From Pseudomonadales bacterium (GTDB lineage Bacteria; Pseudomonadota; Gammaproteobacteria; Pseudomonadales; Azotimanducaceae), in NCBI GenBank assembly GCA_028285415.1, contig JANQPF010000014.1:62001-126000 (forward strand): a DNA stretch of 64,000 nt, written 5' to 3'. Below the pieces are notes generated by a model. The model was not told the origin of the DNA. It saw only the letters and a program-made list of their open reading frames with translations, and made no database searches. Position numbers and translations under genes: made by a program. Shown here piece after piece: positions 1,015 to 43,428 of this stretch. The stretch's first letter is position 1. Each line of letters starts with the position of its first letter.

Positions 1015-1257
1015 ACACTGCCAGTCAGACTCGGCAGCCGAGTTAACCGAGGCAGCCACAAAACAATTCTCATAGGTCACCTCGCATTACGAAATAGTAA
1101 TACTCTGTCCGATTGCGCCTTGTTCCTAACCTAAGAGCATCCACAGAGTCCCAGCCTAACATTCCTGAAACAATTTCTATCGGAAATTAGTCAACGTTTT
1201 GGCCTGTTTTGTCCTAAGATTGACCGGTTTAAATCCGACGCCAGAGATAGGACATTG

Positions 1258-1614
1258 ATGGTTAGATCCGAACTGATAGCCGATGACAAGGTGTTGGTAC
1301 ATTCTTGTTTCGGTGCTATCACAATCCTCGACATATCAACCGCAATGGTCATTTCAGCTCTTCACCCAAACCTTCCCGTGGTGTGGGACTTCACTGAAAG
1401 TGAGAGTGAAACAAACAACGAACCAATGCTAGAACTGACATCTCCATTTCTGAAGTCAGAGTGGTTTAAGGCATCCGACAAAAAGCGTGCGTTCGTTTTG
1501 GCGAAACCAGAATATCGAACGGCATTTACCGAGAGCATGGGGCGAGCAAGTGCTCCATGGCCATGGGCAGTCTTTCCGACTTTAGACGACGCAGTTATGT
1601 GGGCACTTGACTAG
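1258..1614 (+). CDS. SpoIIAA/STAS-like protein, copy A
   Basis: A protein of 118 residues. The pattern is that of the SpoIIAA-like (STAS/SEC14-type) fold: an early beta strand, a HPNLPVVWDF block near residue 40, a KRAFVL strand near residue 80, and the ending AVFPTLDDAVMWAL, which resembles the 'vF.d.deAl.WL' end of that family. The same blocks (HPNLPV.WDF, KRAF, GR.SAPWPWAVF, M.W) occur in the minus-strand gene at 3769-4161, so the two are paralogues. The ATG at 1258 is preferred over the TTG directly before it. It lies upstream of an XRE/PAS-like gene pair. Function is not known; such folds often bind small lipophilic ligands or act as protein-protein switches, which is inference here. Confidence 0.6.
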   Translation: MVRSELIADDKVLVHSCFGAITILDISTAMVISALHPNLPVVWDFTESESETNNEPMLELTSPFLKSEWFKASDKKRAFVLAKPEYRTAFTESMGRASAPWPWAVFPTLDDAVMWALD

Positions 1615-2166: not shown

Positions 2167-2664
2167 ATGCCGACACCACGCTCCGACACCGCCCAACAGA
2201 AGCGACTGGAGCGCGCACATCGATTGAAAGCTGTATGGGAAACAAGGAAGTCCGAACTCGGCCTGATTCAGCGGGACTTAGCCAAACTGCTCGGCTGGGA
2301 GACTCAGGGGGCAGTTGGTCACCTATTCTCCGGGCACACTCCGCTTACCATCGATCTCTTGCTCGACATTTGCGCAATCCTGCAGGTCTCTCCCAACCAA
2401 ATCGTTCCCGAACTCGACACACTCAAGAATTTTGATCTGAATTCAGATGTGTCATACATACAAAGCTTGGACCTGGATCTGCTTGGGATGTGCATCAGTA
2501 CTATTGAAGCTGCGGAGTCGGAACAAAAGATCAGCCTGGGTGAATCAACAAAAAACAAGCTCGTTGAATTTCTCTATGCGGAACTCTCCGGATCAAATAA
2601 GAACCGAAAGACTGCAAAAAAAATGGCTTACAGACTTGTCTCAATTGCTGAGTCATCATCGTGA
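2167..2664 (+). CDS. XRE-type regulator of the XRE/PAS-like pair, island copy
   Basis: A protein of 165 residues. After a basic N-terminus, residues about 30-75 form a Cro/CI helix-turn-helix (QRDLAKLLGWETQGAVGHLFSG, then PLTIDLLLDICAILQVSPNQI). The remaining 90 residues hold a conserved tail containing TKNKLVEFLYAELSGSNKN. A close paralogue lies at 35934-36440 with the same architecture and the same tail (TKNKLVEFLYAELAGSNKN), in GC-rich DNA. It is followed after 30 bases by the PAS-like gene at 2695, and the same gene order recurs at the second copy. The short leaders before both start codons share a TAGGGAA-type ribosome site. I infer that it is a DNA-binding regulator whose partner is the downstream sensor-like protein. 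Confidence 0.75.
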   Translation: MPTPRSDTAQQKRLERAHRLKAVWETRKSELGLIQRDLAKLLGWETQGAVGHLFSGHTPLTIDLLLDICAILQVSPNQIVPELDTLKNFDLNSDVSYIQSLDLDLLGMCISTIEAAESEQKISLGESTKNKLVEFLYAELSGSNKNRKTAKKMAYRLVSIAESSS

Positions 2665-2694
2665 CCAGTTGTCATACTAAAGGGAGCAGCGAAG

Positions 2695-3498
2695 GTGAGC
2701 AGAGAGCCTGCTTCCTCGATACCTAAGAGTCTCGTCAAACCTGATGCAGATATAACTGCACTAATCAACGAAGAAGGCTACGTTCTCAATACAGTACATG
2801 CCCAGTCGTTCGTCGCTATCGTACCGCCCAGCGATGCTATAGGACGACACCTCTCCGATCTCTATAAACCAGTTCCCGAAGAAATACTTCAGTGCTTGGA
2901 GCAGACGTTTGGCGGTAGCGCGCATTGGGCCGCTCTAACCCTCCCAACTGTTTCTGCCATGGGGATCGTTGAGCGTCGATTCGTCGTTGCGTTTGAACCC
3001 TATGAGGCAATCAACAACAAGCAAGTCGCTCTCGTCCGAATGAAACTCCTGACAGACAACACGACTGATGCACTGGAACACGTTGGGAAAACACAAAACG
3101 CCCTCAGAACCAGGGCAAACTATCTCATTTCAGACGAGTTCTCTCTAAATAGTGTCTACATGGATGCCTTGGTTGATGTATCCATGCGGCAATCGGGATT
3201 TGACGCTGCGATTCTGCTAGATGAAGACGGAGTGGTACTCGATGTGTTTAACGTATCAAGTAATCCACCACCGGTACAAAAGGGAGGCAATTTTGTGGAT
3301 TTCCTCAGTCTTTACGATCCTGGATTCCAAGATCGTTGGGACTTTGTGCTCAACCACTGGCAGTACATTAATAGCGTCGAGCAAATCCCGCTACCAGACG
3401 GTTCTGCGATCGCGGTTTTGATAAGATTGCGAGTGACCGACCTAATCGGTCCCAATGGGAAACGCATCATTCAAGTATTTGCTCGGCAGTTAGAATGA
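2695..3498 (+). CDS. PAS-like tandem sensor protein, island copy
   Basis: A protein of 267 residues starting at GTG 2695, with AGGGAGCAGCGAAG just upstream as ribosome site. It reads like two PAS-type modules: one at about 18-115 (DADITALINEEGYVLN ... G.HLSDLYKPVP ... RRFVVAFE) and one at about 150-260 (FDAAILLDEDGVVLDVF ... QVFARQLE), joined by a helical linker (LEHVGKTQNALRTRANYLIS). The phrase 'NEEGYVLN' mirrored by 'DEDGVVLDVF' supports an internal duplication. No kinase, cyclase or output domain is present. The copy at 36460-37290 is strongly similar, including an identical block RANYLISDEFSLNSVY. It follows the XRE gene, so it probably signals to that regulator. The PAS assignment is by pattern only. 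Confidence 0.65.
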   Translation: MSREPASSIPKSLVKPDADITALINEEGYVLNTVHAQSFVAIVPPSDAIGRHLSDLYKPVPEEILQCLEQTFGGSAHWAALTLPTVSAMGIVERRFVVAFEPYEAINNKQVALVRMKLLTDNTTDALEHVGKTQNALRTRANYLISDEFSLNSVYMDALVDVSMRQSGFDAAILLDEDGVVLDVFNVSSNPPPVQKGGNFVDFLSLYDPGFQDRWDFVLNHWQYINSVEQIPLPDGSAIAVLIRLRVTDLIGPNGKRIIQVFARQLE

Positions 3499-3768
3499 TG
3501 CGGTGTAGACACCTAGCGACAACGAGTTCGTCAACACAAACTGAGGCAGCCAAACGACTACAGGGGTTCTACCAACCCGTACCGGCTTTGTGCATGACTA
3601 ATTCGTAATATCTGCCTTAACCTCACAGCGTACTGATGAATTTGCGTAGGGCGTAACTCGGCGTATGACACTCGCTTTTATTTCCCAATTGCCAAACAAA
3701 CCTAGCTCGAACGTTCAGTGTTTTCTTGCATTAACCGAAGAATAGCAATCCACAATACCGAAACAGGA

Positions 3769-4161
3769 CTAAGCGATACGTGGGACCCTTCCTCCTAGAT
3801 CGGTTGTCAGCCAGTGCATTGCATCCACCGGGTCTAAGAATACGGCCCAAGGCCAAGGCGCAGATACACGTCCGAGCACCTGCTCTACGAGGTCATGTTG
3901 GCGGCCGTCCTTAGTGAGAAATGCACGCTTCGCAGTAGATGCGAATACGCGGTTTACCCTCACCCATGCCTTGATTTGGGCAGTCAGGAATTCCAGGGGG
4001 ACGTTAATTTCTCCGTGCCGAAAATCCCAAAGCACCGGCAAGTTTGGATGCGACACTTCAATACAGTCTGTTGCGGCCTCGAGAAGATCGATGAGGCCCA
4101 CGGACCCGAGTGCCCGATTTAGGACTAGGCCGCTGGCTTCAAAATGATAGGTTTGAATCAT
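3769..4161 (-). CDS. SpoIIAA/STAS-like protein, copy B
   Basis: A protein of 130 residues, paralogous to the plus-strand gene at 1258-1614. Shared blocks are HPNLPVLWDF (residues about 38-47), KRAFLT, and GRVSAPWPWAVF followed by AMHWL near the end. It begins with a short beta strand MIQTYHFEASGLVLNRALG, typical of this fold. It is convergent with the PAS-like gene, about 270 bases away. Having two divergent members of one family on either side of the XRE/PAS-like pair suggests that all four genes work together, which is inference. Ligand and function are unknown. Confidence 0.6.
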   Translation of the reverse strand: MIQTYHFEASGLVLNRALGSVGLIDLLEAATDCIEVSHPNLPVLWDFRHGEINVPLEFLTAQIKAWVRVNRVFASTAKRAFLTKDGRQHDLVEQVLGRVSAPWPWAVFLDPVDAMHWLTTDLGGRVPRIA

Positions 4162-13214: not shown

Positions 13215-14411
13215 CTAGCTACGCGCTCTGATACACATCAGGGCTTGCTCTGGACGCAACGTTTCAGCACTGAACGCCTTCGACGGTGCACCGTCAATGA
13301 GTAACCGAAGATAGATTTCATAGTTTGGCAGATTGACGAGGTCTTCTGATCCAAACGTCGGCGCAAATTCTTTCGCAACATATGGCGCGTCCTTACCGCT
13401 CAAACGAAACGAAATAAGTGTTCCGGCGTTCCCAATCACGGCGTATCGGATGTCAGGCTCAATCTGCGAGAGATACTGATTTGCTAGCACCAAACCGACG
13501 CGATACTTGCGCAACTCAGAAATCATGTTGGCAATTGCAAGCGTGGTGAAGTTCTGAAATTCATCAATAAACAGAAAATGATCACCACGCTTGTCTTCAT
13601 CGGTATCGGCACGACTAAATGCCGCTAACCCAATAGTTGTAACGAGGAGTCCGCCGAGTAGCTGAGTGGAGTCTTCTCCAAATCGGCCTTTTGCAAGGTT
13701 AACGAGCAATATCTTTCCACTATCCATAATCTTTCGGAGTGCCAGTGGTTCTTCTGGATCTACCAAGACACGACGCAAAACTGGATCGGCAAGGAATGCG
13801 CCGACTTTGTTCTGTATTGGGACAACAGCATCTGCTCGCAGGCGGTATGAGTATCGTTCGAATTCGTGCTGCCAGAATTCTCGTACTCGGCCGTTGGTGA
13901 TCTGGCCGGATACTTCTTCTCTGAATTGCTTGTCATCAAGGAGACGGAGAATGTCGAGGAGCGTGGAATTCGGTAGATCTAACAAAGCCAATATGGCGTT
14001 ACGGAGGATATGCTCAAGCCGTTGACCCCACGAGTCTTTCCAGGTCTTCTTCAATACCTCTAGCAATCCCGCAGCCGCTAGTGGTCTCCTATCGATCGAT
14101 ACAAATTTGAGCGGATTGTAGCCGTAGGGTTGTTCGGGATCTGCCACGTCAAAATAGACCACATCACCTTTCCGATGCTCGGGCACCCACCGATGGACAC
14201 GTTCAACAAAGTCCCCATGTGGATCAATGAGCGTAAGACCGTAGCCGTTCTCTATGTCCTGGCGAGCAATGGCATCTAGGAGTGTTGTCTTGCCGGCACC
14301 TGTTTTCCCGATCACATACACGTGACTCATGCGATCGGCATACAGGATTCCAAACCGCTTTCGAATGCCGCGCGTATTCGTTTGGGCAAAGTACGCAAGG
14401 TAGTTTTGCAT
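13215..14411 (-). CDS. VirD4/HerA-like type IV secretion ATPase (small)
   Basis: About 398 residues from ATG 14411. The P-loop GKTGAGKT is near residue 35, followed by LTLIDPHGDF. Walker B FLFIDEFQN is near residue 280, followed by RKYRVGLVLANQYLSQI. This is the type IV conjugative-transfer/TraM-recognition family. It has no membrane segment, unlike its larger neighbour. An ATG at 14486 is in frame but lies inside the terminator hairpin of the preceding gene, so the internal ATG is preferred. Two ATPases of one family in one block suggest different steps of DNA transfer, or one for transfer and one for another DNA-pumping job. Confidence 0.75.
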   Translation of the reverse strand: MQNYLAYFAQTNTRGIRKRFGILYADRMSHVYVIGKTGAGKTTLLDAIARQDIENGYGLTLIDPHGDFVERVHRWVPEHRKGDVVYFDVADPEQPYGYNPLKFVSIDRRPLAAAGLLEVLKKTWKDSWGQRLEHILRNAILALLDLPNSTLLDILRLLDDKQFREEVSGQITNGRVREFWQHEFERYSYRLRADAVVPIQNKVGAFLADPVLRRVLVDPEEPLALRKIMDSGKILLVNLAKGRFGEDSTQLLGGLLVTTIGLAAFSRADTDEDKRGDHFLFIDEFQNFTTLAIANMISELRKYRVGLVLANQYLSQIEPDIRYAVIGNAGTLISFRLSGKDAPYVAKEFAPTFGSEDLVNLPNYEIYLRLLIDGAPSKAFSAETLRPEQALMCIRARS

Positions 14412-14472
14412 GTACTCACCGTACCCAGTGTTCCGTTCACACGGGAGAACGGTGAATGTTCCACTGACAGCT

Positions 14473-14500
14473 AAAACGCCTCCCATAAAGGAGGCGTTTT
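14473..14500 (-). terminator. terminator after the RadC-like gene
   Basis: Perfect 11-bp stem AAAACGCCTCC and GGAGGCGTTTT with a six-base loop. It lies two bases beyond the RadC-like stop codon, so the smaller ATPase must have its own promoter or depend on readthrough. Confidence 0.75.
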
Positions 14501-16859: not shown

Positions 16860-19800
16860 CTAACCACTTGGAGGCGGAACATTAGGGCCACGAGGAAGAG
16901 GCGGATCACCTGGTCTTGGCAATCGCCCCGGACCCCTATCATCATGGGTTGGTGGTCCGCCGGAATCAGGGCGGCTCCAGTCATGGGCATGATCTCCACT
17001 ACCTACACCAGCTTCGTCTGGATGCCCCGTATCACGATCCGTCTCTGGGTATCCGTCATCGCCATAAGTGCGGCTACCAGTACCTCCTCGAACCGTCGAT
17101 CCGGGCACTCCAGTAAAGGGAGGTTGATTCTCGGGTGTGTCCTCAAACTCAGGATCTCCGTCTGTTGAACAGGAGTCTCCTCCACATTCGTCTCCTGTCA
17201 TCATAATCGACACCCCTGCAACTACAATAGCTTGGCAGGCCATGACCACTACGGCAGCAGCTTCTGCGCAAGCAGGGGTAACCCACGGGAGCAAACACGC
17301 CTGAGCGGCAAGACCGAAAGGATCCTTCGACACTAGCGGGTTGTTTCCCACATAAGCGAATGAGTTGAGTCCGCCGTACAGACCAATCGGGTCACTCTGG
17401 GTATATCTGCCTGTGCTGGGGTCATAGGTTCTGAAGTAGTTGTAGTAGAGACCGCTCTCAGCATCTTCATACTGCCCTGGGAACCGGATCTGCTGGTCAA
17501 TTGTGTTAGTCAAGGTACTAACCCGACCAAACGGTTCGTAGTCAGCAGACCACACAACCTGCTCACTTTCATCACTCAACGACTGCGGCGTCCCCAAGTG
17601 ATCGTTGTGCACAAAGTACATTTCCTCGTTGAGGGTATCAGTGTCATCAATCACAGCCGTCTGCTCACCGTTGGCGTAGACATACTCCCGCACTGTCTGA
17701 CCAGTCGAAGCATCAATTTCGGCGATCAGTTGACCCCCTTGGTCATATACGAAGTGAATGATCTCAGATCCTATTGTCTTGCTTACCCGCTGTCCCATCG
17801 CGTTGTAGGTGTACGTTGCGACCGCCGGCTCATTTACCGTCACGGTGATGACTTCAGAGTCGATAGCACTGTCACCATCCGTGGCCGTGACCGTAACACT
17901 GTACGGGCTGTTGGCAGCATCACCCGTCGCCGGTGTCCAAGAGAGCGTGCCAGTGCCATCACCGTTATCCGTCAGAATGTTGGGGTTGCCCGGCAAGTTA
18001 TTGGTCTGACTCAGCACCAGCGGCGCCGGGCCATCGCTGTCCGTTGCCGTGATTGAGAGTGACAGCTGGAACCCTTCGACAGCACTTTGATTACCAATGG
18101 TCGCCAGCACCGGTGGCTGATTGGTGACCACAGGATCGACAGTCACTGACACCGTTGCTGAATCACTTCCACCATTGCCGTCAGATGCGGTATAGGTGAA
18201 CGTCTCTACGCCTGTGAATCCAGGATCAGGTGTGTAGTCTACGTTCGTACCATTGATGGTCGCTGTCCCACCGTTGCTCGGGGCGCCCACAGAATCAATA
18301 TTCAACGTGTCGAGATCTGCATCAGTATCGTTACCCAGCACAGAGAGCGAGTTGTTTGACGTGCCTTGAGTCACGTTGTAGCTATCGTTCACAGCCACCG
18401 GTGGTGTGTTGGTCGAGTTCACCGTCATGGTGACCGTAGCGGTCTGCTCGTGCCCGGTCGTGCCATCGGTCATTGTGTAGGTGAACGTCTCGTTGCCTAC
18501 GTATCCTGCAGCCGGCGTGTAAAGCACATTCGTACCACTGATGCTCACAGAACCGCCGTTACTGGTCGTGCCGAGGCTTGAGAGGGAGAGCGTATCGCCG
18601 TCAGGATCGGTATCGTTCGCCAAGACCGCCAAGCTGTTGTTGCTCGTGTCTTGATCGACCATGTAGGCATCGTCGTTCGCAACCGGCGGTTGATTCGAAC
18701 CCGACGCAGATACGGTGACGGTCACCTGTGCGGTATCGACGCTGAACGGACGCCCATCCTTGATCTTGTAGGTAAACGTTTCGGTACCAACAAAGCCAGT
18801 TGCGGGTGTATACAGGACGGCATCCTTGGTGCCATTGATGGAGACTGAACCACCCTGGTTTGTACCCCAGACAAAGCTGATCTCCAATGGATCACTGTTG
18901 GGGTCAGTGTCATTCATCATCACGGACAGCGAGTTGTTACTCGAATTTTCGGCCACGCCGAAGCTGTCATTCGCGGCAACCGGAAAGTCATTGTCCGAGA
19001 CCACAATGACGCCCGTGGCATCACCCAGACGACCTGCGGCGTCCGTCACGGTATAGGAGAAATTCACCACCTCATCCTGACCCGAATGCGGTGTGGGTGC
19101 GTCATAGATCAATGCATCCCCTGCTCCATTGACGCTCAAGGTCCCATACGTGCCATTTTGCTGGGCAGTGGTAATCCAGAAGGACTCACTCTCGGTATGG
19201 TAGTCATTGGCCAGCACATCGATGCTGTTGCCTGTGGTTTCGGGGTCAACGAATGCTCTGCTCCACTTTGCTACGGGACCGATGAGCGCGCTTTCCGCAG
19301 GACCTTCCCCCGTGGGGGTATAGCCAGAGTCAGTGGTCAAAACGATCTTGTCGACAATCACCCCGTCTTCACCCATCCACACCCGAACCGCGTGATTCCC
19401 GGTCGAGGGCACATTGATCGTGTGGGAACCGTCCGACCAGTTCGCCTGATTGAGCGGTGTGGGGATGTCGATGTTGTCTGCGTTCGGATCGGCCGCGCCA
19501 TTGAGCCCGACATGGATTTCGTTCGAGTCGGTGGACGGCGCTAAACCGCGCACCCACACATAGTGGGTACCGGTGTGAGCAAACTCCACGCGAAACTCGA
19601 ACCAGGGGCTGTTACCCACAAAGTTCGTTGAGTGCGCGGTGCCGTTGTCGGGGTCTGCCCGTCCCGCTTCATCGTCTGAATAGCCGGGAGCGGCATCGTA
19701 AAGGTACTTCCAGCTAGAACCACCGACTGCCGCGTAGTCATGCGCGTTTTCGACTTCTAGTGAGACAAGGCCTTGAGTGCCCGCGTCTTGCTTGAAGTTT

Positions 19801-19865
19801 GCCGCAGATACCGTGGTTGCGATCAGGGCACTCAGTGCCATCAGTGAGAGTTTGGTGAAGTTCAT
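16860..19865 (-). CDS. secreted protein with Ig-like repeats and RHS core domain
   Basis: A protein of 1001 residues. Residues 1-22 are a signal peptide. Residues about 25-190 look like a beta-sandwich of carbohydrate-binding type. Residues about 200-580 hold four tandem cadherin/Big_9-type repeats, each marked by N.PPVA.ND.Y, a SNNSL.VL.NDTD stretch and TFTYT.TDG. Residues about 585-675 are a further Ig-like unit. From about 680 to 850 lies an RHS core (YVYANGEQTAV, HNDHLGTPQSL, GRYTQSDPIGLYGGLNSFAYVGNNPL). The last 150 residues hold a hydrophobic patch, then a Gly/Pro/Asp-rich tail, with no known toxin domain. It overlaps the upstream RHS gene by four bases (ATGA). It probably forms the second half of one RHS shell. 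Confidence 0.8.
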   Translation of the reverse strand: MNFTKLSLMALSALIATTVSAANFKQDAGTQGLVSLEVENAHDYAAVGGSSWKYLYDAAPGYSDDEAGRADPDNGTAHSTNFVGNSPWFEFRVEFAHTGTHYVWVRGLAPSTDSNEIHVGLNGAADPNADNIDIPTPLNQANWSDGSHTINVPSTGNHAVRVWMGEDGVIVDKIVLTTDSGYTPTGEGPAESALIGPVAKWSRAFVDPETTGNSIDVLANDYHTESESFWITTAQQNGTYGTLSVNGAGDALIYDAPTPHSGQDEVVNFSYTVTDAAGRLGDATGVIVVSDNDFPVAANDSFGVAENSSNNSLSVMMNDTDPNSDPLEISFVWGTNQGGSVSINGTKDAVLYTPATGFVGTETFTYKIKDGRPFSVDTAQVTVTVSASGSNQPPVANDDAYMVDQDTSNNSLAVLANDTDPDGDTLSLSSLGTTSNGGSVSISGTNVLYTPAAGYVGNETFTYTMTDGTTGHEQTATVTMTVNSTNTPPVAVNDSYNVTQGTSNNSLSVLGNDTDADLDTLNIDSVGAPSNGGTATINGTNVDYTPDPGFTGVETFTYTASDGNGGSDSATVSVTVDPVVTNQPPVLATIGNQSAVEGFQLSLSITATDSDGPAPLVLSQTNNLPGNPNILTDNGDGTGTLSWTPATGDAANSPYSVTVTATDGDSAIDSEVITVTVNEPAVATYTYNAMGQRVSKTIGSEIIHFVYDQGGQLIAEIDASTGQTVREYVYANGEQTAVIDDTDTLNEEMYFVHNDHLGTPQSLSDESEQVVWSADYEPFGRVSTLTNTIDQQIRFPGQYEDAESGLYYNYFRTYDPSTGRYTQSDPIGLYGGLNSFAYVGNNPLVSKDPFGLAAQACLLPWVTPACAEAAAVVVMACQAIVVAGVSIMMTGDECGGDSCSTDGDPEFEDTPENQPPFTGVPGSTVRGGTGSRTYGDDGYPETDRDTGHPDEAGVGSGDHAHDWSRPDSGGPPTHDDRGPGRLPRPGDPPLPRGPNVPPPSG

Positions 19866-22800
19866 GGCGTCACCTCCGTCTCAACCAAGCGGTTCCGGTC
19901 GTTGTACTCCAAGTCTAATCCTGGCCCCGACCCGCGATCATCGATGACCACATTGCCTTGGGCATCGTAGGTGAACACGCGAAGGTCACCGGCTTCATCC
20001 ACCGACAGCAGCCGGTTGCTGGTTGTCGCATAGGTGTAAGTCAGCACATCCGTACTGTTGATGGTCTTGACGGTGCGATTACCAACCTCGTCATAGCTGT
20101 AGTCAAACGTACCATAGACGCCTACAGCCTGAGTCAGTCGATAGAGGCTGTCATAGGTAAACGTCTGACTCCGCGTACCGTCCAGCGCATTCGTGATGCC
20201 GGTGATGTTGTTGACCGGGTTGTAGAGGTAGTCACGGTCGATCACACCGGCACTGCCTGAGGTTGTGACCAGGAGATCTGTGATCCGGTAGTCCGAGTCA
20301 AAAACCCTCGATGCGGTACTGCCATTGCCGAACGTCCAACCATCGGCCGGACCAAACGGCAGATAGGTGATGCTGGTCGCAACATTCTCTGTCGCACTCC
20401 CCGAATCCGTTTGGGTGGTCACCGTGTCAACGCGACCCAAAACATCACGCCCGTAGTTCACGATGCGGCCGCTCGGATAGGTCACGGTCAGGACGTTGTC
20501 AGCAAGATCGTACGTGTAGCTCGTGACGTAGGAGGCCGCACCAATGACCCGGGTTTCGGTCAAAACATTGCCCCGGTCGTCATAGGTGTAGCTCGTACTG
20601 CCCGACTCATCCGTCATGGAGGTTAGCCGCCCTTCTCCGTTCGTGCCGGTGTCGTAGGTATAGGTGATGTTCTCTGCCGTACTGGCCGGGTAAGTCACGC
20701 TGGTGAGGCGGCTCAGTCCGTCATACGCCATCTGCGCCACCACACCCCGCGCATCGGTGGTTTGCGTGCGGTTACCGGCAGCATCGTAAAGATGGACGCT
20801 GATACCGGCATCGGCACTGTCTTCCTGGATCAGATTGTCCAGACCATCGTAGATGAAGCTCGTGATGATGCCTCTGGGATCGGTGACCTGGGTCAGATTG
20901 TCCCGGTCGTCGTAGTCGTAATCCGCACTATTGAGATCCGGGTCGGTGACGCTGATGAGACGGTCCAAGGCGTCGAAAGACTGTGTGGTTGTGTCCAGGA
21001 GCGCGTCTTCAATCCCGTCCAAATTGTCATTGAGGTCATAGTCATACGAGGTGGTCTGGCTTTGCGCGCCAATGTCTTCTCGCAGCCGGGAGAGTTCGTC
21101 GAAGAGCCGGGTTTGGGTTTTGACGATGACGGACGCGCTGTTCCGAATGGTTTCTCCGGTGCGATTACCGGCATTGTCGAGCGTGTACTCAATGCGCTCA
21201 CCCAGATTGTTTTCGATGGCTACCAAACGATGGGCGTTGTCGTATTCGTAATCTAGCGAACTGCCATTAGGCAGCGTCACAGAGGTCAGCTGACTGGCAT
21301 CATCATACGAGAAAGAGGTGACGGCATTGCCTTGGCTCGATTCCACGGTACTACTCGTAAGACGGCCTCGTTCATCATAGGCGAGCACCGTATCGACACC
21401 GTTTGGATCTTCGATTCGCGTAGGTAGCCCACGCGTATCCCGAGAGACAATGGTCGTGACATGGCCTTCGGCATTCGTGGTAGTCGCCAGATCTCCATTA
21501 GCGTCGTAGGTGAAATTGGTGGTATCTCCGGTCCGAGGACCGTCTATGGAAGTCACGAGTCCAAATGTGGGGTGATACGTGTAGGTCCACACGCGAGTGT
21601 TGCCGTTGGTTGAGTATGGAATCGATTGGGTTTGGGTGTCGGTAATCGTACGTGTGAGCAACCGCCCTTCGCTGTCGTAGGTCATGTCGACGGTCTGACC
21701 TGGACGAACGATCTGTGTCGGCACTCTGAGCGTCGCGTGCCAGGTCGTTGTGGTTGTACGAGCATCTGAAGTACCCGAAGCTTCTGTTTTGCTCTCTACC
21801 AGACCCCGACTGTTATACGTGAAATCCGTGATGTTGCCGTTGTTGTCCGTCTGTGTATCGACGAATCCATTGGCGTCATACGTTGAAGCCATAGTCGTGG
21901 CCGCGCACAGCGTTGTGGCTTGCCCATCAACGCTGCTCACTTTACGAATGCCATTTTCTGTCACAAAGGTGTATATCGCTTGCTTGCTGAGCTCGTTGGT
22001 AACAGTGACCGTTCCGTCTGTGTTGTACGCCACCGAAGTCGCTTCGACGTTGCCAGCCCGTTCACTGAGCGTGGCCCTACCCTCACTATCGTAAGCATAG
22101 GTGGTATACCTCACACCTAGCTCATCAGTGATGCCTGTTACTAGAGCGTTATCGTTGATGTCTTCGTAGTGATACTGAATCTGTGGATTGTCAGTTGAGG
22201 TACCAGGGGTATCGTCGGGAAAGGTGACAAACTCCAGCATCCCGTTAACGTCATAGTCATACGTGTAGACGTTACCAGCAGGATCCGTGAGCGAAGCCAC
22301 GCGATCACTGGCGTCGCGCGTTAGCGTAAGCACACGCCCGGAGAAGTGGGTAACGGAAGACAAGAGTCCCAAGGTATAGCTTAGCGTGATTGACTGTCCA
22401 TCCCGATTGGTAATGGAGAGTAGCTGACCGTCCCCGTTGTAGACTTCTACCCGATCATCGGGATACACCACCGTCCACTCATCTGTGGTGCCATCGTGCG
22501 ACAACGCTGTCTTGATATCAGACAATGGTTCCCAAATATCATCCGTAAAGTTGGTTTCGTAAAACGAAATCCCTCGACCATCGGCTTGCCAGACCCGCGT
22601 ATGAATCCCATTGACAAACTCAAGGTGCTGTTGGTAATTGAAACGCCACACGCCATCGAGTGCGTTGTACGCACGTTTCCATGCGAGAGGGAACACGCCT
22701 CCCCCGCGATAGTCAGTGAATTCGAGGTACTTGTTCCCAGAACCGAAATAGATCGGGCTTGAACTTCTAGGAGTAACGGACCCCGGTCCGCCAGGTCCAT

Positions 22801-23293
22801 CACAGGGAAATGGCCCCTGTGATGCCGGATCATTTTGGACCGTATCGTCCACACATAGTCCATTTTGCAGCCTCTGACCGGTGGGACAGGTGGGGTTGTC
22901 AAACGCTAGGCATACGGAACATTCAACCGGAGATCCATCGAGACACAGCCCTGCTCCTGGCGGGCTGACCATGTAAGCCCAAAAGGTATAGGTTTGGGGC
23001 GCATGGGCATCCACCATCGCTTGATAACGGGAGTGGCAGGCATGAGACTCTGAGTTGGGAGATCCTCCAGCGAAGACCGCACCGGGTTCTGAGAGCATAC
23101 CGTCCGCGCACGCGGATGGGTTCGTAAGATTTGGTGGATCCGCAACCTCGATGATGCCAACACCAGCGCAGTCTGCGGCAAAAGACGGTGCTACAGCCAT
23201 CAGAAACGGGCTCAGTACCAACATCGAAATGAGCCTTCTCATCCCGATGCACGGCTGTGAGGCTGATGTCGAACGTGAGGTGTAGTTCCCCAT
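19862..23293 (-). CDS. secreted RHS/YD-repeat protein
   Basis: A protein of 1143 residues. A signal peptide ends near residue 39 (SFAADCAG); the ATG at 23293 has an AGAAGGA site, and ATG 23242 would give a shorter signal. Residues about 40-150 are Cys-rich. Residues about 170-260 look like the DUF6531 entry module of RHS proteins (FTDYRGGGVFPLAWKRAYNA). From there to the end run many YD repeats (YDANGDLATTTNAEGH, YDERGRLTSSTV, YDDRGNVLTETR and others). It lacks the RHS core and a toxin end; these are on the next gene, which overlaps it by four bases. Splitting the shell in two genes is unusual. Confidence 0.85.
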   Translation of the reverse strand: MGNYTSRSTSASQPCIGMRRLISMLVLSPFLMAVAPSFAADCAGVGIIEVADPPNLTNPSACADGMLSEPGAVFAGGSPNSESHACHSRYQAMVDAHAPQTYTFWAYMVSPPGAGLCLDGSPVECSVCLAFDNPTCPTGQRLQNGLCVDDTVQNDPASQGPFPCDGPGGPGSVTPRSSSPIYFGSGNKYLEFTDYRGGGVFPLAWKRAYNALDGVWRFNYQQHLEFVNGIHTRVWQADGRGISFYETNFTDDIWEPLSDIKTALSHDGTTDEWTVVYPDDRVEVYNGDGQLLSITNRDGQSITLSYTLGLLSSVTHFSGRVLTLTRDASDRVASLTDPAGNVYTYDYDVNGMLEFVTFPDDTPGTSTDNPQIQYHYEDINDNALVTGITDELGVRYTTYAYDSEGRATLSERAGNVEATSVAYNTDGTVTVTNELSKQAIYTFVTENGIRKVSSVDGQATTLCAATTMASTYDANGFVDTQTDNNGNITDFTYNSRGLVESKTEASGTSDARTTTTTWHATLRVPTQIVRPGQTVDMTYDSEGRLLTRTITDTQTQSIPYSTNGNTRVWTYTYHPTFGLVTSIDGPRTGDTTNFTYDANGDLATTTNAEGHVTTIVSRDTRGLPTRIEDPNGVDTVLAYDERGRLTSSTVESSQGNAVTSFSYDDASQLTSVTLPNGSSLDYEYDNAHRLVAIENNLGERIEYTLDNAGNRTGETIRNSASVIVKTQTRLFDELSRLREDIGAQSQTTSYDYDLNDNLDGIEDALLDTTTQSFDALDRLISVTDPDLNSADYDYDDRDNLTQVTDPRGIITSFIYDGLDNLIQEDSADAGISVHLYDAAGNRTQTTDARGVVAQMAYDGLSRLTSVTYPASTAENITYTYDTGTNGEGRLTSMTDESGSTSYTYDDRGNVLTETRVIGAASYVTSYTYDLADNVLTVTYPSGRIVNYGRDVLGRVDTVTTQTDSGSATENVATSITYLPFGPADGWTFGNGSTASRVFDSDYRITDLLVTTSGSAGVIDRDYLYNPVNNITGITNALDGTRSQTFTYDSLYRLTQAVGVYGTFDYSYDEVGNRTVKTINSTDVLTYTYATTSNRLLSVDEAGDLRVFTYDAQGNVVIDDRGSGPGLDLEYNDRNRLVETEVTP

Positions 23294-25466: not shown

Positions 25467-26609
25467 CTACGCTGCCTTACTTGTTGAGGGTGCAAATGGT
25501 GTTTGCATCACCTGAGTGACTGAATATAGCGATTCTTGGGAGAGGTGCGCATAGCGCATTGTCACCTTTAAATCCGTATGTCCAAGGAGTTTCTGAATGA
25601 CAATAATGGGAACTCCTTTCATAGCTAAGTGTGATGCAAAGGTGTGTCGAAGAACGTGACAGGTAACCACACGCAAACGAGCGAGATTACATCCTACAGC
25701 AATCTTTCTATTAAGAACCCGCCCTTCGAACATTTGTCCGTCCACACCGAATACAAAGCCTTCTTCTCGTTGCCGTCTCTTAAGCAATTCGACCACGTCA
25801 TCAGATAACGGTACGGATCGTACGCTGTTGCCTTTGGGAGATAGCAGTTCATTGGTCACAGAGCATCTGTTGTGCCTGACTAGTACGGTTTTTTTGTCCA
25901 ACTGAACATCTTGCCATCGAAGGGCCTCAAGCTCTCCCCGACGAAGACCCGTTTTCAGGGCGGTATAAACAATGTCGTACCAAATGCCCTCGAGATTTGA
26001 TAAGAGACGGTCACACTCTTCTTTCGACAGAAAATCAAAGTGCGTTGGGGCTAGTTTCAATGGAGTGATTTCGGGGATCTTTTCGATTCCGATCCATTTC
26101 TTCGCGTCACGCAAGCACTTACCTAGTACCCCGAGTTCGCTGTTTATAGTCTTGTTAGACATACCTGACCTTACTCGCTCTAACTTGTACTTCTCAACTT
26201 CTAAAGTCGCTATGTCTCCAATGGGGTTAGCTCCAAAAGTTGGTATCAGCAGCCGATCTAAGATTCCCCGAGTTTTCTTAGCCATAGAAGGTTTGTTGTG
26301 GACCTCTACGTGCGTCGCAAACCAAAGCTCAGCGAATTCTCGAAAGGATTGAGTCGTTTCTACAGGCTCTTCGATCTCTTCCCCTTCCGCCAACTTCCGC
26401 CTTAGAGACATCTCAAATTTGCGAGCACCTTCCTTCGTATTCTCGGGGCTCTTTTTCCTATAGCGCTTTTTATTGTGGGTTATGTCCACCCACCAGGAGT
26501 TTCTAATCTTTCTTTGTGCCATATCTATTTTAGCAAACCATTCTCCAACTACCCCACGGAAGCGCGCTCCAAACCATCCAATAGGTCTGACCGAATAATC
26601 CGAATACAT
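25467..26609 (-). CDS. tyrosine site-specific integrase
   Basis: A protein of 380 residues (an in-frame ATG at 26522 would remove 29). Residues about 30-90 look like an Arm-binding domain (WWVDITHNKKRYRKKSP), 100-190 like a core-binding SAM-like domain, and 215-370 are catalytic: first Arg in TGLRRGELEAL, HxxR box in CHVLRHTFASHL, and GHTDLKVTMRYAHLS with the second His and the nucleophile Tyr. This is the type used by islands and phages that integrate at tRNA genes. GGAGAG lies upstream of ATG 26609. Inverted repeats at 26656-26706 are candidate control sites. Confidence 0.9.
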   Translation of the reverse strand: MYSDYSVRPIGWFGARFRGVVGEWFAKIDMAQRKIRNSWWVDITHNKKRYRKKSPENTKEGARKFEMSLRRKLAEGEEIEEPVETTQSFREFAELWFATHVEVHNKPSMAKKTRGILDRLLIPTFGANPIGDIATLEVEKYKLERVRSGMSNKTINSELGVLGKCLRDAKKWIGIEKIPEITPLKLAPTHFDFLSKEECDRLLSNLEGIWYDIVYTALKTGLRRGELEALRWQDVQLDKKTVLVRHNRCSVTNELLSPKGNSVRSVPLSDDVVELLKRRQREEGFVFGVDGQMFEGRVLNRKIAVGCNLARLRVVTCHVLRHTFASHLAMKGVPIIVIQKLLGHTDLKVTMRYAHLSQESLYSVTQVMQTPFAPSTSKAA

Positions 26610-27020: not shown

Positions 27021-27923
27021 CTAATTTGCGAGCGGTTGTATGAATTGTTCCCACAAGTAACTCGCAGCCTGCTCGCTATTCATAGATTTGTCAGCCCGAC
27101 CGGTTGCGTAGCTACCAAATCCACTTGCTTCCCAGCTCAACTTGTCCCTAGAAACAGTGACCCAATCGTTGTACGAGTTATCGTCATCAATTTGGGCGAA
27201 GCTCGAGCTGTAGGAGATTTGCTCTCCATTCGATGGGCCGCCCAACCAGACTTTACACTGAGCCCTTCGTTCACCCGAGACAAACGCGTAACACGTAAAC
27301 TTGGCTGCATGTATGTCATTTATCTCGGCATCGATGTGCTCGTGCTGCGACAGCTGCAATACTCCTTCGGCAAAGTAGTCCCGGATCTCTTTGAATCCTG
27401 ACTGCACGAATCGGTGCCGCTCAAGCTCTGTTGGTTTCCTGGCTAGTTCCGGTTGGCGGATATTTCTGATGTTTGCAGTCTGCGTTGGCAATACTAGATC
27501 TGAAGCGTGACCAAGTAGCGAATCGATGTCATTCACAAGTCGATCGCTGTCATCAGGCCATATCATGTATAGCTTGTCATTTATTAGCGGGTACTTTTCG
27601 ATAACTCCAGCACGCTCTTGCGGAGTACCAACGAGCAATGGCAACACCCTTGATGTTCCAGAGCCCGCCTCTAGATTGAGAGCTGCGTTAAACTCTCGTT
27701 GTGGCCAGGGTTTTGTTAGGAAGCTTGAGCTCAGAACAACAATTACGTAGTGCGACTGCCTGAGGCCCTCATTTACCTTGTCAGGGAGACTATCTCCCCA
27801 CCTGATTTCGTTCTGATCCAGCCAACAGTTAATCCCGTTTTCCTGCAATAATTCTACAAGAGGAACCGCAACATCTTCCCTGTCCGAAGATGCGTGGCAA
27901 ACAAAGACATCAAATTCCATCAA
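27021..27923 (-). CDS. TIR-domain effector
   Basis: A protein of 300 residues. Residues 1-130 form a TIR domain: DVFVCHASSDRED, then CWLDQNEIRWGDSLPDKVNEGL, SHYVIVVLSSSFL and KPWPQREFNAAL, with Glu77 at the position of the catalytic Glu of NAD-cleaving TIR proteins. Residues about 165-300 form an unassigned C-terminal domain, probably for sensing or partner binding. Bacterial TIR proteins usually act as abortive-infection effectors that consume NAD or make signal nucleotides. It starts 9 bases after the 151-residue gene upstream. The frame continues past the stop, so this protein may be shorter than its ancestor. The TIR domain itself is intact. Confidence 0.8.
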   Translation of the reverse strand: MMEFDVFVCHASSDREDVAVPLVELLQENGINCWLDQNEIRWGDSLPDKVNEGLRQSHYVIVVLSSSFLTKPWPQREFNAALNLEAGSGTSRVLPLLVGTPQERAGVIEKYPLINDKLYMIWPDDSDRLVNDIDSLLGHASDLVLPTQTANIRNIRQPELARKPTELERHRFVQSGFKEIRDYFAEGVLQLSQHEHIDAEINDIHAAKFTCYAFVSGERRAQCKVWLGGPSNGEQISYSSSFAQIDDDNSYNDWVTVSRDKLSWEASGFGSYATGRADKSMNSEQAASYLWEQFIQPLAN

Positions 27924-34889: not shown

Positions 34890-35350
34890 GACTCCTACCT
34901 CTTCCGCCAATCGGGCTGCAATACCATCGGACACGTAACCGCCACTCGTGCTGATGAGCAGTTGGGAGTCGAAGAGTTTATTCCCAAGCGTCTCGGGCCT
35001 TGGCCCCAAGGCCAAGGCCAGCTTGGGAGTAAACTCGTTGGAGCTCGGCGCATGCGCCGAGATCGGACTCCTACCTCTTCCGCCAGCTAATCCTGCAGCC
35101 CCTACGATCCGGTTACCCTAGAAAGCACGTCAACCTTTCCGAGTCGAAGAGTTTTGCGCAGCAAAACTCCAAGAGCTCGGCCTCAAGGCCGAGATCAGAC
35201 GCCTACCTCTTCCGCCAGCTAATCCAGCAGCCCCTACGGTCCGGTTACCCTATAAAGTACGTCACCCTCTCCGAGTCGAAGAGTTTTGCGCAGCAAAACT
35301 CGCTAGAGCTCGGCCTCAAGGCCGAGATCAGACGCCTACCTCTTCCGCCA
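34890..35350 (+). repeat. array of tRNA-Ser-type 3' ends with hairpins (island right edge)
   Basis: A 20-mer ending TACCTCTTCCGCCA appears at 34890-34909, 35066-35085, 35198-35217 and 35331-35350 (first two GACTCC, last two GACGCC at the start). It equals the T-loop end, T-stem, acceptor 3' half and GCCA of a tRNA whose acceptor stem would begin GGAAGAG, as in tRNA-Ser. Copies 2 to 4 are spaced 132 and 133 bases, with similar spacers. Each spacer carries a hairpin of the GAGTTTTGC-GCA-GCAAAACTC type and one of the CTCGGCC-TCAA-GGCCGAG type; the first spacer has different sequence but keeps both stems. No 5' tRNA part is present. GC-rich chromosome begins right after, so this is likely the attachment end of the island. 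Confidence 0.7.
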
Positions 35351-35933: not shown

Positions 35934-36440
35934 ATGCCAGCACCACGCTCAAAAACCGTAAAGAAGAAACAGCAAGCACGGGCAGATCGCTTGAGAACCA
36001 TCTGGGAGCGCAAAAAAGGCGATCTCGGCCTACTGCAGAAGGACGTTGCGAAACGGCTGGGATGGAAAACCCAGGGCGCAGTGGGGCACGTGTTGTCGGG
36101 GGCAACCCCGCTGACCATCGATCTGCTGCTGCAGATGTGCGAGATATTGAAGGTACCGCCTGCCTCGATCGTGCCTGAACTGGCCGAGCTGCAGAAATAC
36201 GACGACAAGATCCGCGAAACCGCCACATCGCAGATTCGCAACGTCGATCTGGGCCTCCTCGGCAACTGCATAAAAACCGTCGAAGACGCCGAGCGGGCGC
36301 AGAGCACGGAGCTTCCCGAACACACGAAAAACAAGCTGGTCGAGTTCCTCTACGCGGAGCTTGCCGGATCGAATAAAAACCCCCAGGCGGTTCAGGAGAT
36401 GGCACATCGCCTGCTCGCCATCGCCGCGCCCTCCGCGTAG
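35934..36440 (+). CDS. XRE-type regulator of the XRE/PAS-like pair, chromosomal copy
   Basis: A protein of 168 residues. It has a Lys/Arg-rich start (KTVKKKQQARADRLRTIWE), a Cro/CI helix-turn-helix at about 30-75 (LQKDVAKRLGWKTQGAVGHV, PLTIDLLLQMCEILKVPP) and the conserved tail TKNKLVEFLYAELAGSNKN. The paralogue in the island is at 2167-2664. This copy is GC-rich like its chromosomal surroundings and lies about 580 bases past the last tRNA-Ser-like repeat. The PAS-like gene follows after 19 bases. I infer that it is the resident version of the module. Confidence 0.75.
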   Translation: MPAPRSKTVKKKQQARADRLRTIWERKKGDLGLLQKDVAKRLGWKTQGAVGHVLSGATPLTIDLLLQMCEILKVPPASIVPELAELQKYDDKIRETATSQIRNVDLGLLGNCIKTVEDAERAQSTELPEHTKNKLVEFLYAELAGSNKNPQAVQEMAHRLLAIAAPSA

Positions 36441-36459
36441 CAGCCAACCAGGCCACACA

Positions 36460-37290
36460 GTGACGGATAAGCCCAAGCCCATACCCCTCATACCGAAGGA
36501 CCTGATCAAGTCAGACGCGGACATTACCGCCCTGGTCAACGAACACGGGTACATACTGAATTGTGTCTATGCAACCGCGTTTGCACCGCTCATCCCGGTC
36601 AACGACGTGGTTGGCAAACATCTGTCCGAGCTCTATCGACCCGTGCCCGGAGAAATTCTCAGCAGCCTGGAACGGGCGTTCGAAGGCGAAGCGCACTGGA
36701 CCGCCATCACCCTGCCAACCCCGACGCCGGTTGGGACCATCGACAGACGATTTGTGGTGGCGTACGAAACGCACGACAACATCGACGGGAATCAAGTGGT
36801 GCTCGTGCGTATGAAACTGCTCTCAGACGACATTACCGAGGCCCTCGAGCACGTCGGGACAACGCAGAACTCTTTGCGGGAACGGGCCAACTATCTGATC
36901 TCCGACGAGTTCTCTTTGAACAGCGTGTACCTGGACGCGCTGATCGACGTGACAATGCGAGAAACGGGATTTGATGCGACCATACTGCTGGACGAAGACG
37001 GCGTTGTGCTCGACGTGTTCAGTCTCGCCAACACGCCCCCCGCGGTTCCCGAAGGCGCAAACTTCATCGAATTCCTGACCTCATTCGACCCCGGCTTTCA
37101 AGAACGCTGGGACTTTCTGCTCAATCAATGGCAGTACATCAACGCGATCGAACAGATACCCATGCCGGGTGGCTCGGATATTGCGATGTTGATCCGGGTC
37201 AGAGTAACAAAGCTTCAAACGCCCGAGGGCAAGCGGGTTGTGCAGGTTTTCGCCAGCAAACTGGACCCGGGCATGCCAGACGACTCATAA
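36460..37290 (+). CDS. PAS-like tandem sensor protein, chromosomal copy
   Basis: A protein of 276 residues starting at GTG 36460, 19 bases after the XRE stop. An in-frame ATG at 36361 lies inside the XRE gene and is unlikely. Two PAS-like modules are visible at about 20-120 (SDADITALVNEHGYILN ... ELYRPVPGEIL) and 155-265 (TILLDEDGVVLDVF ... RVVQVFASKLD), linked by a helix and the invariant block RANYLISDEFSLNSVY. It is similar along its whole length to the island copy at 2695-3498. There is no enzymatic or output domain. It likely senses a signal and acts on the XRE partner. Confidence 0.65.
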   Translation: MTDKPKPIPLIPKDLIKSDADITALVNEHGYILNCVYATAFAPLIPVNDVVGKHLSELYRPVPGEILSSLERAFEGEAHWTAITLPTPTPVGTIDRRFVVAYETHDNIDGNQVVLVRMKLLSDDITEALEHVGTTQNSLRERANYLISDEFSLNSVYLDALIDVTMRETGFDATILLDEDGVVLDVFSLANTPPAVPEGANFIEFLTSFDPGFQERWDFLLNQWQYINAIEQIPMPGGSDIAMLIRVRVTKLQTPEGKRVVQVFASKLDPGMPDDS

Positions 37291-38328: not shown

Positions 38329-38385
38329 CGTTGTTCCGCGCAGCCAAAGCTGCGAGGCTTGCGGATTGCCACCCGGGGTCCGCTC

Positions 38386-42330: not shown

Positions 42331-43428
42331 TTGAGGGCAAATTTGAGCGCGGTACAGACCATTACGCTGCCAGGCACCCTGACCATGAAACATGGCGAGC
42401 TTGCGCAACCGACGCTGGCGTTCGAGACCTGGGGTGAACTCAACGCCCAGGCAGACAACTGTGTGCTGATCTTCACGGGTCTATCGCCGTCAGCGCACGC
42501 CGCGTCCTCTACCGAGGACCCCTCTGCCGGCTGGTGGGAGGACATGCTCGGCTCCGCCAAGCCTCTCGACAGCGACCGCTACTTCATCATCTGCATCAAC
42601 TCGCTCGGCAGCTGTTTCGGCAGCACCGGACCCGCAAGCGTCAATCCCGCCAGCGGCGCACCGTATCGCCTCAGCTTTCCCGTGCTCACCGTCGAAGACA
42701 TCGCGTGCGCTGCGGAACACGTGCTGGATCACTTCGGCGTCAACCGCGTGCATACGGTGATCGGCTCTTCGATGGGCGGCATGACGGCGCTGGCGTTTAC
42801 CCTGCTGCACCCCGAACGCTCGCGCCGCCTGGTTTCGATTTCCGCGGCAGCGCGCAGCATGCCGTTTTCGATCGCGCTGCGTTCGCTGCAGCGTGAGATG
42901 ATCCGCACGGACCCCGTATGGAACAACGGCAACTACGATCTCGACGGCGACGGCCCCATCAGCGGCATGCGCCTGGCCCGTAAGCTCGGCATGATCACTT
43001 ACCGTTCGGCGGCGGAGTGGGCGGAGCGTTTCGGCCGCGAACGGGCGCCGGATTTCGGCGAGGCGGACAATCCGTTTGGCATCGACTTCGAGGTCGAGTC
43101 GTATCTGGAAAGCCACGCCAACCGCTTCATCGGCAGCTTCGACGCCAATTGTTATCTCTATCTGTCGCGCGCGATGGATCTCTTCGATGCCGCCGATCAG
43201 GGCGGCAGCCTGGACGCGGCGTTTGCCCGCCTCGAGCTCGAAAGCGCGCTCATCATCGGTGTAGAGACGGATTTCCTGTTCCCCATACACCAGCAGGAAG
43301 AGCTGGCACTGGCGCTGGATCAGCACGTATCCGATGTGACCTTCACCCGGATGGCATCCATGCAGGGACACGATTCGTTCCTCGTCGACATGGACCGCTT
43401 CCGCCCGGCCATTGCGGACTATTTCTGA
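42331..43428 (+). CDS. metX: MetX-type homoserine/serine O-acyltransferase
   Basis: A protein of up to 365 residues of the alpha/beta-hydrolase MetX family. Features are LGSCFGSTGPASVNP, the nucleophile elbow GSSMGGM with Ser near residue 147, VETDFLFPI with the acid, and MQGHDSFLVD with the catalytic His. The start is unsure: TTG 42331 and TTG 42343 precede the first ATG at 42385, which would cut into the domain. MetX proteins transfer acetyl or succinyl groups to homoserine in methionine synthesis; some act on serine in cysteine synthesis, and the sequence alone does not decide. Its end overlaps the convergent DsbA-like gene by 10 bases. Confidence 0.8.
   Translation: MRANLSAVQTITLPGTLTMKHGELAQPTLAFETWGELNAQADNCVLIFTGLSPSAHAASSTEDPSAGWWEDMLGSAKPLDSDRYFIICINSLGSCFGSTGPASVNPASGAPYRLSFPVLTVEDIACAAEHVLDHFGVNRVHTVIGSSMGGMTALAFTLLHPERSRRLVSISAAARSMPFSIALRSLQREMIRTDPVWNNGNYDLDGDGPISGMRLARKLGMITYRSAAEWAERFGRERAPDFGEADNPFGIDFEVESYLESHANRFIGSFDANCYLYLSRAMDLFDAADQGGSLDAAFARLELESALIIGVETDFLFPIHQQEELALALDQHVSDVTFTRMASMQGHDSFLVDMDRFRPAIADYF

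What the first reader, a model, noticed from the sequence alone, without database searches (positions are those of the whole stretch)
2167..3498. An uncharacterised XRE / PAS-like gene pair present both in the island and just outside it
The pair at 2167-3498 recurs at 35934-37290 with the same order, the same short spacing, the same GTG start of the second gene and strong similarity along both proteins (identical blocks RANYLISDEFSLNSVY, LDEDGVVLDVF, near-identical TKNKLVEFLYAEL tail). The island copy is AT-rich and the outer copy GC-rich, so they diverged long ago or came from different hosts. The second protein has two PAS-like units and no output domain, so the XRE partner is the natural output. 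A resident and a carried copy suggest cross-talk or mimicry between island and host.
Basis: partly seen in the sequence, partly recalled or inferred. Interest (0 to 1): 0.75.

Follow-up and report, generated by a model that had tools for sequence, protein, structure and literature searches.

The report
Paired repressor–PAS sensor at selC island
A rare two-gene switch, a repressor-like DNA-binding protein and a separate two-PAS sensor protein, sits once inside a large mobile island and once just beyond its edge, which makes cross-regulation between island and host worth testing, although no function has been shown.

Summary
The pair at 2167-3498 recurs at 35934-37290 with 57% and 64% protein identity. 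Profile and protein searches find only these two copies in the genome, and no other frames match at E <= 1e-8 between the 96.9 kb island part of the contig and the next 49 kb. A moderate AlphaFold model shows two PAS folds joined by helices; nearest solved structure PpsR. The XRE protein has a lambda-CI-type half and no detected S24 domain.

The family is small: four loci found, both genes adjacent in 4 of 4, three lineages. The island sits at tRNA-Sec (selC): intact tRNA, integrase and selB on contig C4, and four copies of the tRNA's last 20 bases at window 34890-35350. Copy 2 lies 583 bp beyond the last repeat, in a segment not found beside the next core gene in 17 relatives' stretches: accessory, not "resident".

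Best reading: a CI-type repressor whose input is a separate PAS-PAS protein (inferred). Cross-talk is possible (invariant recognition-helix core), but no shared operator was found.

The parts
2167..2664 (+). Island copy, gene 1: XRE protein, lambda-CI-type HTH half plus a C-terminal half, 165 aa
   Evidence: HTH_3 E 3.7e-8; lambda CI, E 1.2e-8 alone and 1.7e-10 by profile
2695..3498 (+). Island copy, gene 2: PAS-helix-PAS protein, 267 aa, GTG start, 30 nt after gene 1
   Evidence: fold inferred from its 64% identical paralogue
34890..34909 (+). att-like repeat 1: exact copy of the 20 bases at the 3' end of this genome's tRNA-Sec (C4), edge of the island
   Evidence: 4 matches in the window with up to 3 mismatches; 0 of 100 shuffles reach 4
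35066..35085 (+). att-like repeat 2 (exact)
35198..35217 (+). att-like repeat 3 (1 mismatch)
35331..35350 (+). att-like repeat 4 (1 mismatch)
35934..36440 (+). Outer copy, gene 1: XRE protein, 168 aa, 583 bp beyond the last att-like repeat
   Evidence: HTH_3 E 2.1e-6
36460..37290 (+). Outer copy, gene 2: PAS-helix-PAS protein, 276 aa, GTG start, 19 nt after gene 1
   Evidence: AlphaFold pLDDT 68, two PAS folds; Foldseek best hit PpsR E 5.1e-9
42331..43428 (+). First gene right of the island that is conserved in the genus; marks where core sequence resumes

Best explanation
The pair is a two-gene regulatory module. The XRE protein binds DNA with a lambda-CI-type headpiece and most likely represses its own promoter and a few island genes. 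It lacks the self-cleaving S24 domain of CI/LexA, so its signal would come from its operon partner: a soluble PAS-helix-PAS protein that senses a small molecule, redox state or protein and docks on the XRE C-terminal half to change its oligomeric state or DNA binding. Copy 1 rides in a selC-inserted island of at least about 100 kb. Copy 2 is a diverged, still constrained copy in an accessory segment beside the island, probably left by or captured from an earlier element at the same hotspot. Shown: gene pair, adjacency, island edges, divergence. Predicted: folds. Inferred: repression, docking, sensing, and the origin of copy 2.
For: XRE profile matches lambda CI over its residues 5-82 (E 1.7e-10; all 7 distinct PDB sequences found are CI or CI constructs). 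In phages 19 records match, none over 80% of the query; the 8 listed lie within residues 7-113 and 5 of these 8 are annotated as CI or prophage repressors. No S24, kinase, receiver or protease domain at E <= 1. PAS-helix-PAS model with PpsR on top; in PpsR the inter-PAS linker takes part in oligomerisation and binds AppA (PMC3949515, passages). Both genes adjacent, same order and strand, in 4 of 4 loci. In the genus XRE is in 2 of 40 genomes and PAS in the same 2 of 37. Purifying selection: dS saturated or 4.6, dN 0.26-0.46 between diverged copies. Pairwise identities of the two genes rank alike. Only frames shared across the island edge.
Against: No operator shared by the copies (0 shared 11-mers; shuffles give 0.1 on average); best upstream palindromes are reached by 12, 35, 44 and 36 of 100 base shuffles for copy 1, copy 2, G030 and G424; two candidate palindromes of copy 1 recur no more than chance in the window. 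No expression or binding data. PAS_4 is under the Pfam cut-off (19 against 23.1 bits) in copy 2 and absent in copy 1. TM-scores of the listed PDB matches, normalised by the query, are low (0.24-0.43). The XRE model is poor (pLDDT 58; no PDB match at E <= 0.001). No cofactor site identified. G424 and the island copy are nearly identical, so co-occurrence rests on three lineages.
Confidence: 0.5

Rival explanations
1. Copy 2 is the island's counterpart in a control loop: island and flank copies bind the same operators, so the outer copy represses or pre-sets the island (immunity or cross-talk).
For: Recognition-helix core T46-H52 and following T58-L64 invariant in 3 of 3 aligned XRE proteins; C-terminal tail 16/19 identical between the two window copies; only frames shared across the island edge.
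Against: No shared sequence motif upstream of copy 1, copy 2 and G030 (0 shared 11-mers with up to 2 mismatches in 150 bp; shuffles 0.1 on average). The same module occurs in G030 between TetR and TerB genes, on a 16.8 kb contig whose only DNA match to the window is the PAS gene. The proteins differ at 36-43% of positions.
Confidence: 0.25
2. Copy 2 is merely a fossil of an older selC element or an independent acquisition, with no functional link to copy 1.
For: Four att-like repeats suggest repeated insertion or duplication; copy 2 segment not seen at the core gene in 17 relatives' stretches; intermediate GC.
Against: Both ORFs of copy 2 are intact and constrained. No att-like repeat to the right of copy 2 in the window within 3 mismatches.
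Confidence: 0.45
3. The pair is a toxin-antitoxin-like module with XRE as antitoxin.
For: Small XRE gene followed by a partner gene; a weak antitoxin hit (couple_hipB) for copy 1, 16 bits against a cut-off of 71.65.
Against: Partner is modelled as two PAS domains and has no toxin match; no PADLOC hit at E <= 0.001 for P0001 or P0002 (copy 2 not given).
Confidence: 0.04

Closest known systems
PpsR/CrtJ (PAS-HTH repressor) with AppA
   Same: PAS, helical linker, PAS arrangement; best Foldseek hits 4hh3, 4hh2, 4l9g; PAS domains govern a repressor
   Different: Here DNA binding is in a separate XRE protein; PpsR carries its own HTH and three PAS domains (PMC3949515, passages); sequence identity in the structural alignments 13-16%
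Lambda-type CI repressors
   Same: N-terminal DNA-binding half aligns over about 78 residues
   Different: No S24 self-cleaving domain found; the C-terminal part beyond about residue 121 matched nothing outside the four loci in the matches listed by the searches run
ImmR/ImmA and Stl-type island switches (mechanisms recalled; Stl and ImmR seen only as weak Foldseek hits)
   Same: XRE repressor of a mobile element that takes its signal from another protein
   Different: Partner is a PAS protein, not a metalloprotease (ImmA) or a dUTPase (Stl); Foldseek hits at E 0.25 (Stl) and 3.4 (ImmR) to a poor model

Membership tests
XRE / HTH_3 regulators | HTH_3 domain above Pfam gathering score | tested here: met
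   33.7 and 28.1 bits against 23
CI/LexA repressors | C-terminal S24 self-cleaving domain | tested here: not met
   no S24 match in P0001 or P0003 at E <= 1
PAS superfamily | PAS fold | tested here: met
   two PAS folds in the model of P0004; 205 PDB matches at E <= 0.001, of which the 50 listed are mostly PAS or related sensor proteins; model confidence moderate (pLDDT 68)
PAS superfamily | Pfam PAS model above gathering score | tested here: not met
   PAS_4 19 bits against 23.1 in P0004, none in P0002
PpsR/CrtJ | HTH in the same chain as the PAS domains | tested here: not met
   no HTH match in P0002 or P0004; the HTH is in the neighbouring gene
ImmR/ImmA switches | metalloprotease partner | tested here: not met
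   no protease match in P0002 or P0004
Two-component systems | histidine kinase and receiver domains | tested here: not met
   none in either gene
Type II toxin-antitoxin | toxin domain in the partner | tested here: not met
   no such match in P0002 or P0004; P0002 none in PADLOC
XRE-PAS switch as proposed | physical contact between the two proteins | not testable with these tools
   no complex prediction on hand

The most novel reading that the evidence does not exclude
A split-repressor immunity system: a CI-type headpiece and a detached PAS-PAS sensor, carried by a selC island and matched by a diverged copy just outside its att site, so that the outer copy senses the environment and decides whether the island's copy lets the island express or move.
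Probability: 0.12. Interest if true: 0.75.

Novelty: new variant of a known kind. Interest (0 to 1): 0.42.

Why it matters
If the PAS protein controls the XRE repressor, this is a way of switching a mobile island by an environmental signal rather than by DNA damage and repressor self-cleavage. The two copies, one on each side of the island edge, would make island-host cross-regulation directly testable in a simple reporter strain.

Tried and rejected
Chimeric contig: rejected as unlikely. The low-GC part of C21 ends at copies of the tRNA-Sec 3' end, and contig C4 shows the other side: an intact tRNA-Sec with the same exact 20 bases, a GC step, an integrase on the low-GC side and SelB and SelA on the high-GC side. 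C4 and C21 are not joined by sequence, so the island size (about 97 + 3.5 kb) assumes one element and is a lower bound.

Resident core copy: rejected. Toxin-antitoxin and two-component readings: rejected. Shared operator: looked for, not found. Promoter and terminator scans were near chance level. No Rfam family reaches threshold in the window. Sequence searches of the second protein gave nothing in plasmids, phages, IMG/VR or the PDB; a first genome-contig scan with P0004 alone confirmed none, the second with the alignment gave two. Full-length XRE relatives were not found in the order sample: of 6 of 390 genomes with a match, the own genome is one and the 5 others match within residues 9-117. 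In plasmids 4 records match the HTH half (42-49% of the query). One weak PAS hit (G682, E 7.8e-5, 22 bits, profile 32-134) in the phylum search was not followed. One IMG/VR locus (L067) matches residues 32-77 of the XRE only and was not read. Viral structure library: 8 matches at E <= 0.001, headed by a phage histidine kinase, taken as ordinary PAS similarity. Literature: three searches for XRE-PAS pairs returned 0, 1 and 1 papers; that paper (PMC8314537) was seen as a listing only. 'Not in print' is claimed only for those searches.

Whether the MAG labelled Rhodospirillales (G424) truly carries the island or holds a misbinned contig was not settled. Window 1-38000 matched only its contig 9.

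Full report
Observation. The two gene pairs are real. Copy 1 is an XRE gene at 2167-2664 and a GTG-started gene at 2695-3498; copy 2 is 35934-36440 and GTG 36460-37290. The XRE proteins are 57% identical over 168 columns and the partners 64% over 264. The second protein of copy 1, and a profile of the XRE proteins, each find exactly these two places in the window's own genome at E <= 0.01. Comparing 567 stop-to-stop frames (60 aa or more) of the first 96.9 kb of the contig with 435 of the next 49 kb gives four matches at E <= 1e-8: the two genes and two out-of-frame readings over the XRE gene. So this is not a general duplication.

What the proteins are. The XRE protein carries an HTH_3 domain (33.7 and 28.1 bits against a cut-off of 23). 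A profile search of the PDB finds 7 distinct sequences, all lambda CI or CI constructs, E 1.7e-10 to 3.5e-5, within profile positions 7-85. Among phage records 19 match copy 2's XRE, none over 80% of the query; the 8 listed lie within residues 7-113, and 5 of the 8 are annotated as CI or prophage repressors. No S24 domain was found at E <= 1. The C-terminal half is predicted as helices, but the model is poor (pLDDT 58) and has no PDB match at E <= 0.001.

The second protein has no confident Pfam domain: PAS_4 is below its cut-off in copy 2 and absent in copy 1. AlphaFold from three sequences gives a moderate model (pLDDT 68, pTM 0.50) of two alpha/beta domains joined by helices of low confidence. 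Foldseek against the PDB gives 205 matches at E <= 0.001, headed by PpsR (E 5.1e-9), with LOV-HK, MmoS, FixL, DosP, NifL and ARNT-type PAS proteins among the 50 listed. TM-scores of the listed matches normalised by the query are low (0.24-0.43), which I read as different domain orientation; the PAS reading rests on the fold of the domains.

Distribution. The last is 97-98% identical in protein to the island copy, so there are three lineages. The GTG start of gene 2 holds for three of four; G030 has TTG or ATG. Counts, own genome included unless said: PAS protein in 2 of 58 relatives; PAS profile in 1 of 390 of the order (own only), in 2 of 398 of the phylum, the second a weak partial hit, and in 1 of 198 in the search around G424, G424 itself. 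XRE profile in 2 of 40 of the genus and 6 of 390 of the order, where the 5 others match within residues 9-117. None for the PAS protein in plasmids, phages or IMG/VR. The genome contigs and IMG/VR scans use short peptide patterns and can miss distant members. The sample codes PL25a and IP29b occur in a coral-skeleton metagenome paper (PMC9868349, passages; the two bins themselves were not seen there), so coral skeleton is the probable source of those two MAGs; the origin of the window was not told.

Divergence and selection. Among copy 1 (with its near-twin in G424), copy 2 and G030, synonymous sites are saturated (dS infinite, or 4.6 in one comparison) while corrected dN is 0.26-0.46. Copy 1 against G424 gives dN 0.008-0.012 and dS 0.04-0.06. 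The pairwise identities of XRE and PAS rank in the same order (58/63, 56/59, 52/55%), as for genes that travel together, but three lineages cannot prove co-evolution. Between the window copies the inter-PAS linker is the most conserved part (36/47, against 61/107 and 65/98 for the PAS domains). This does not hold clearly for G030: the linker is 29/47 and 28/47, the first PAS domain 67/107 and 65/107.

The island and its edge. From the first base of the contig to about window 34.9 kb the GC is mostly 46-53%, with a richer stretch (up to 0.57) around window 17-23 kb; further right it is mostly 60-65%, with 51-62% in the first 3 kb beyond the edge. The edge carries four copies of GACTCCTACCTCTTCCGCCA at 34890, 35066, 35198 and 35331 (two exact, two with one mismatch; 0 of 100 shuffles reach four). 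These 20 bases are exactly the 3' end, plus one base, of this genome's intact tRNA-Sec on contig C4 (tRNA at 3568-3660, 20-mer at 3567-3586), and of the tRNA-Sec of relative G030. On its 3' side C4 has 3.5 kb of 49-52% GC DNA with a 419-aa phage-type integrase (Phage_int_M 9.3e-31, Arm-DNA-bind_3 4.5e-19, Phage_integrase 5e-7); on its 5' side lie SelB (Beta-barrel_SelB 1.3e-22, SelB-wing_3 5.8e-16) and SelA (1e-141) in GC-rich DNA. This is the usual anatomy of a tRNA-inserted element. The window part also holds a phage integrase (25467-26609), a HerA/TrwB-like ATPase (13215-14486), a RadC-type and an AlpA-type protein. Papers on islands at selC in other bacteria appear in a search listing (none read). 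At least about 100 kb is implied if both ends belong to one element.

Copy 2 begins 583 bp beyond the last repeat. The next gene that is conserved in the genus begins at 42331. In G025 a copy of the 20-mer lies 34 bases before the start of the alignment to that gene. In G006, G018 and G003 an intact tRNA-Sec lies 6.0, 5.4 and 4.0 kb upstream of it. In the other 14 of the 17 stretches no tRNA-Sec was found, five of them having under 5 kb upstream, so the place is not shown to be next to selC in every relative. In none of the 17 stretches, 12 with at least 7 kb upstream, was the pair, the decarboxylase (38359-39729) or the M48 peptidase (39853-42237) found at E <= 1e-5. So copy 2 sits in accessory DNA beside the island.

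How it most likely works. A CI-type repressor without a cleavage domain needs another input; the neighbouring PAS-PAS protein is the obvious one. In PpsR, PAS domains and the helical linker between them set the oligomeric state of the repressor, and the linker is the AppA site (PMC3949515, passages). By analogy the XRE C-terminal half would dock on the PAS protein. This step is inference. Cross-talk between the copies is allowed by the invariant recognition-helix core, but not supported by the upstream sequences: no common motif, and palindromes at chance level against base shuffles.

Verdict. A real, rare, well-conserved two-gene module in and beside a selC island, built of known parts in an arrangement that my three literature searches did not show. 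The strong form of the claim, that island and host copies talk to each other, is open.

Noticed in passing
1255-1614 (+) and 3769-4161 (-): Two small paralogous proteins (31% identity, E 4e-19) flank the island pair on either side; neither has a Pfam or NCBIfam match at E <= 0.01.
   Followed up: partly
L011 / G424 contig 9 (42,923 bases): A contig of a 1.3 Mb MAG labelled Rhodospirillales is 92.7-96.9% identical to the island contig over its longer matching pieces, with large unmatched stretches between: transfer between distant hosts or a misbinned contig.
   Followed up: partly
35040-35350: Tandem units of about 132 bases, each ending in a tRNA-Sec 3' end copy and holding GC-rich palindromes: repeated insertion scars or duplicated attachment sites.
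   Followed up: partly
27021-27923 (-) and 32899-34719 (-): A TIR-domain protein and an AAA_21/AAA_15 ATPase with partial matches to ThsB-like and AriAB/PtuA defence models; possible defence genes near the island edge.
   Followed up: no
16860-23293 (-): Two large adjoining genes with cadherin-like, Big_9 and RHS repeats, in DNA richer in GC (up to 0.57) than most of the island.
   Followed up: no
25467-26609 (-): A second phage-type integrase inside the island besides the one next to tRNA-Sec on contig C4, so the island may be composite.
   Followed up: no
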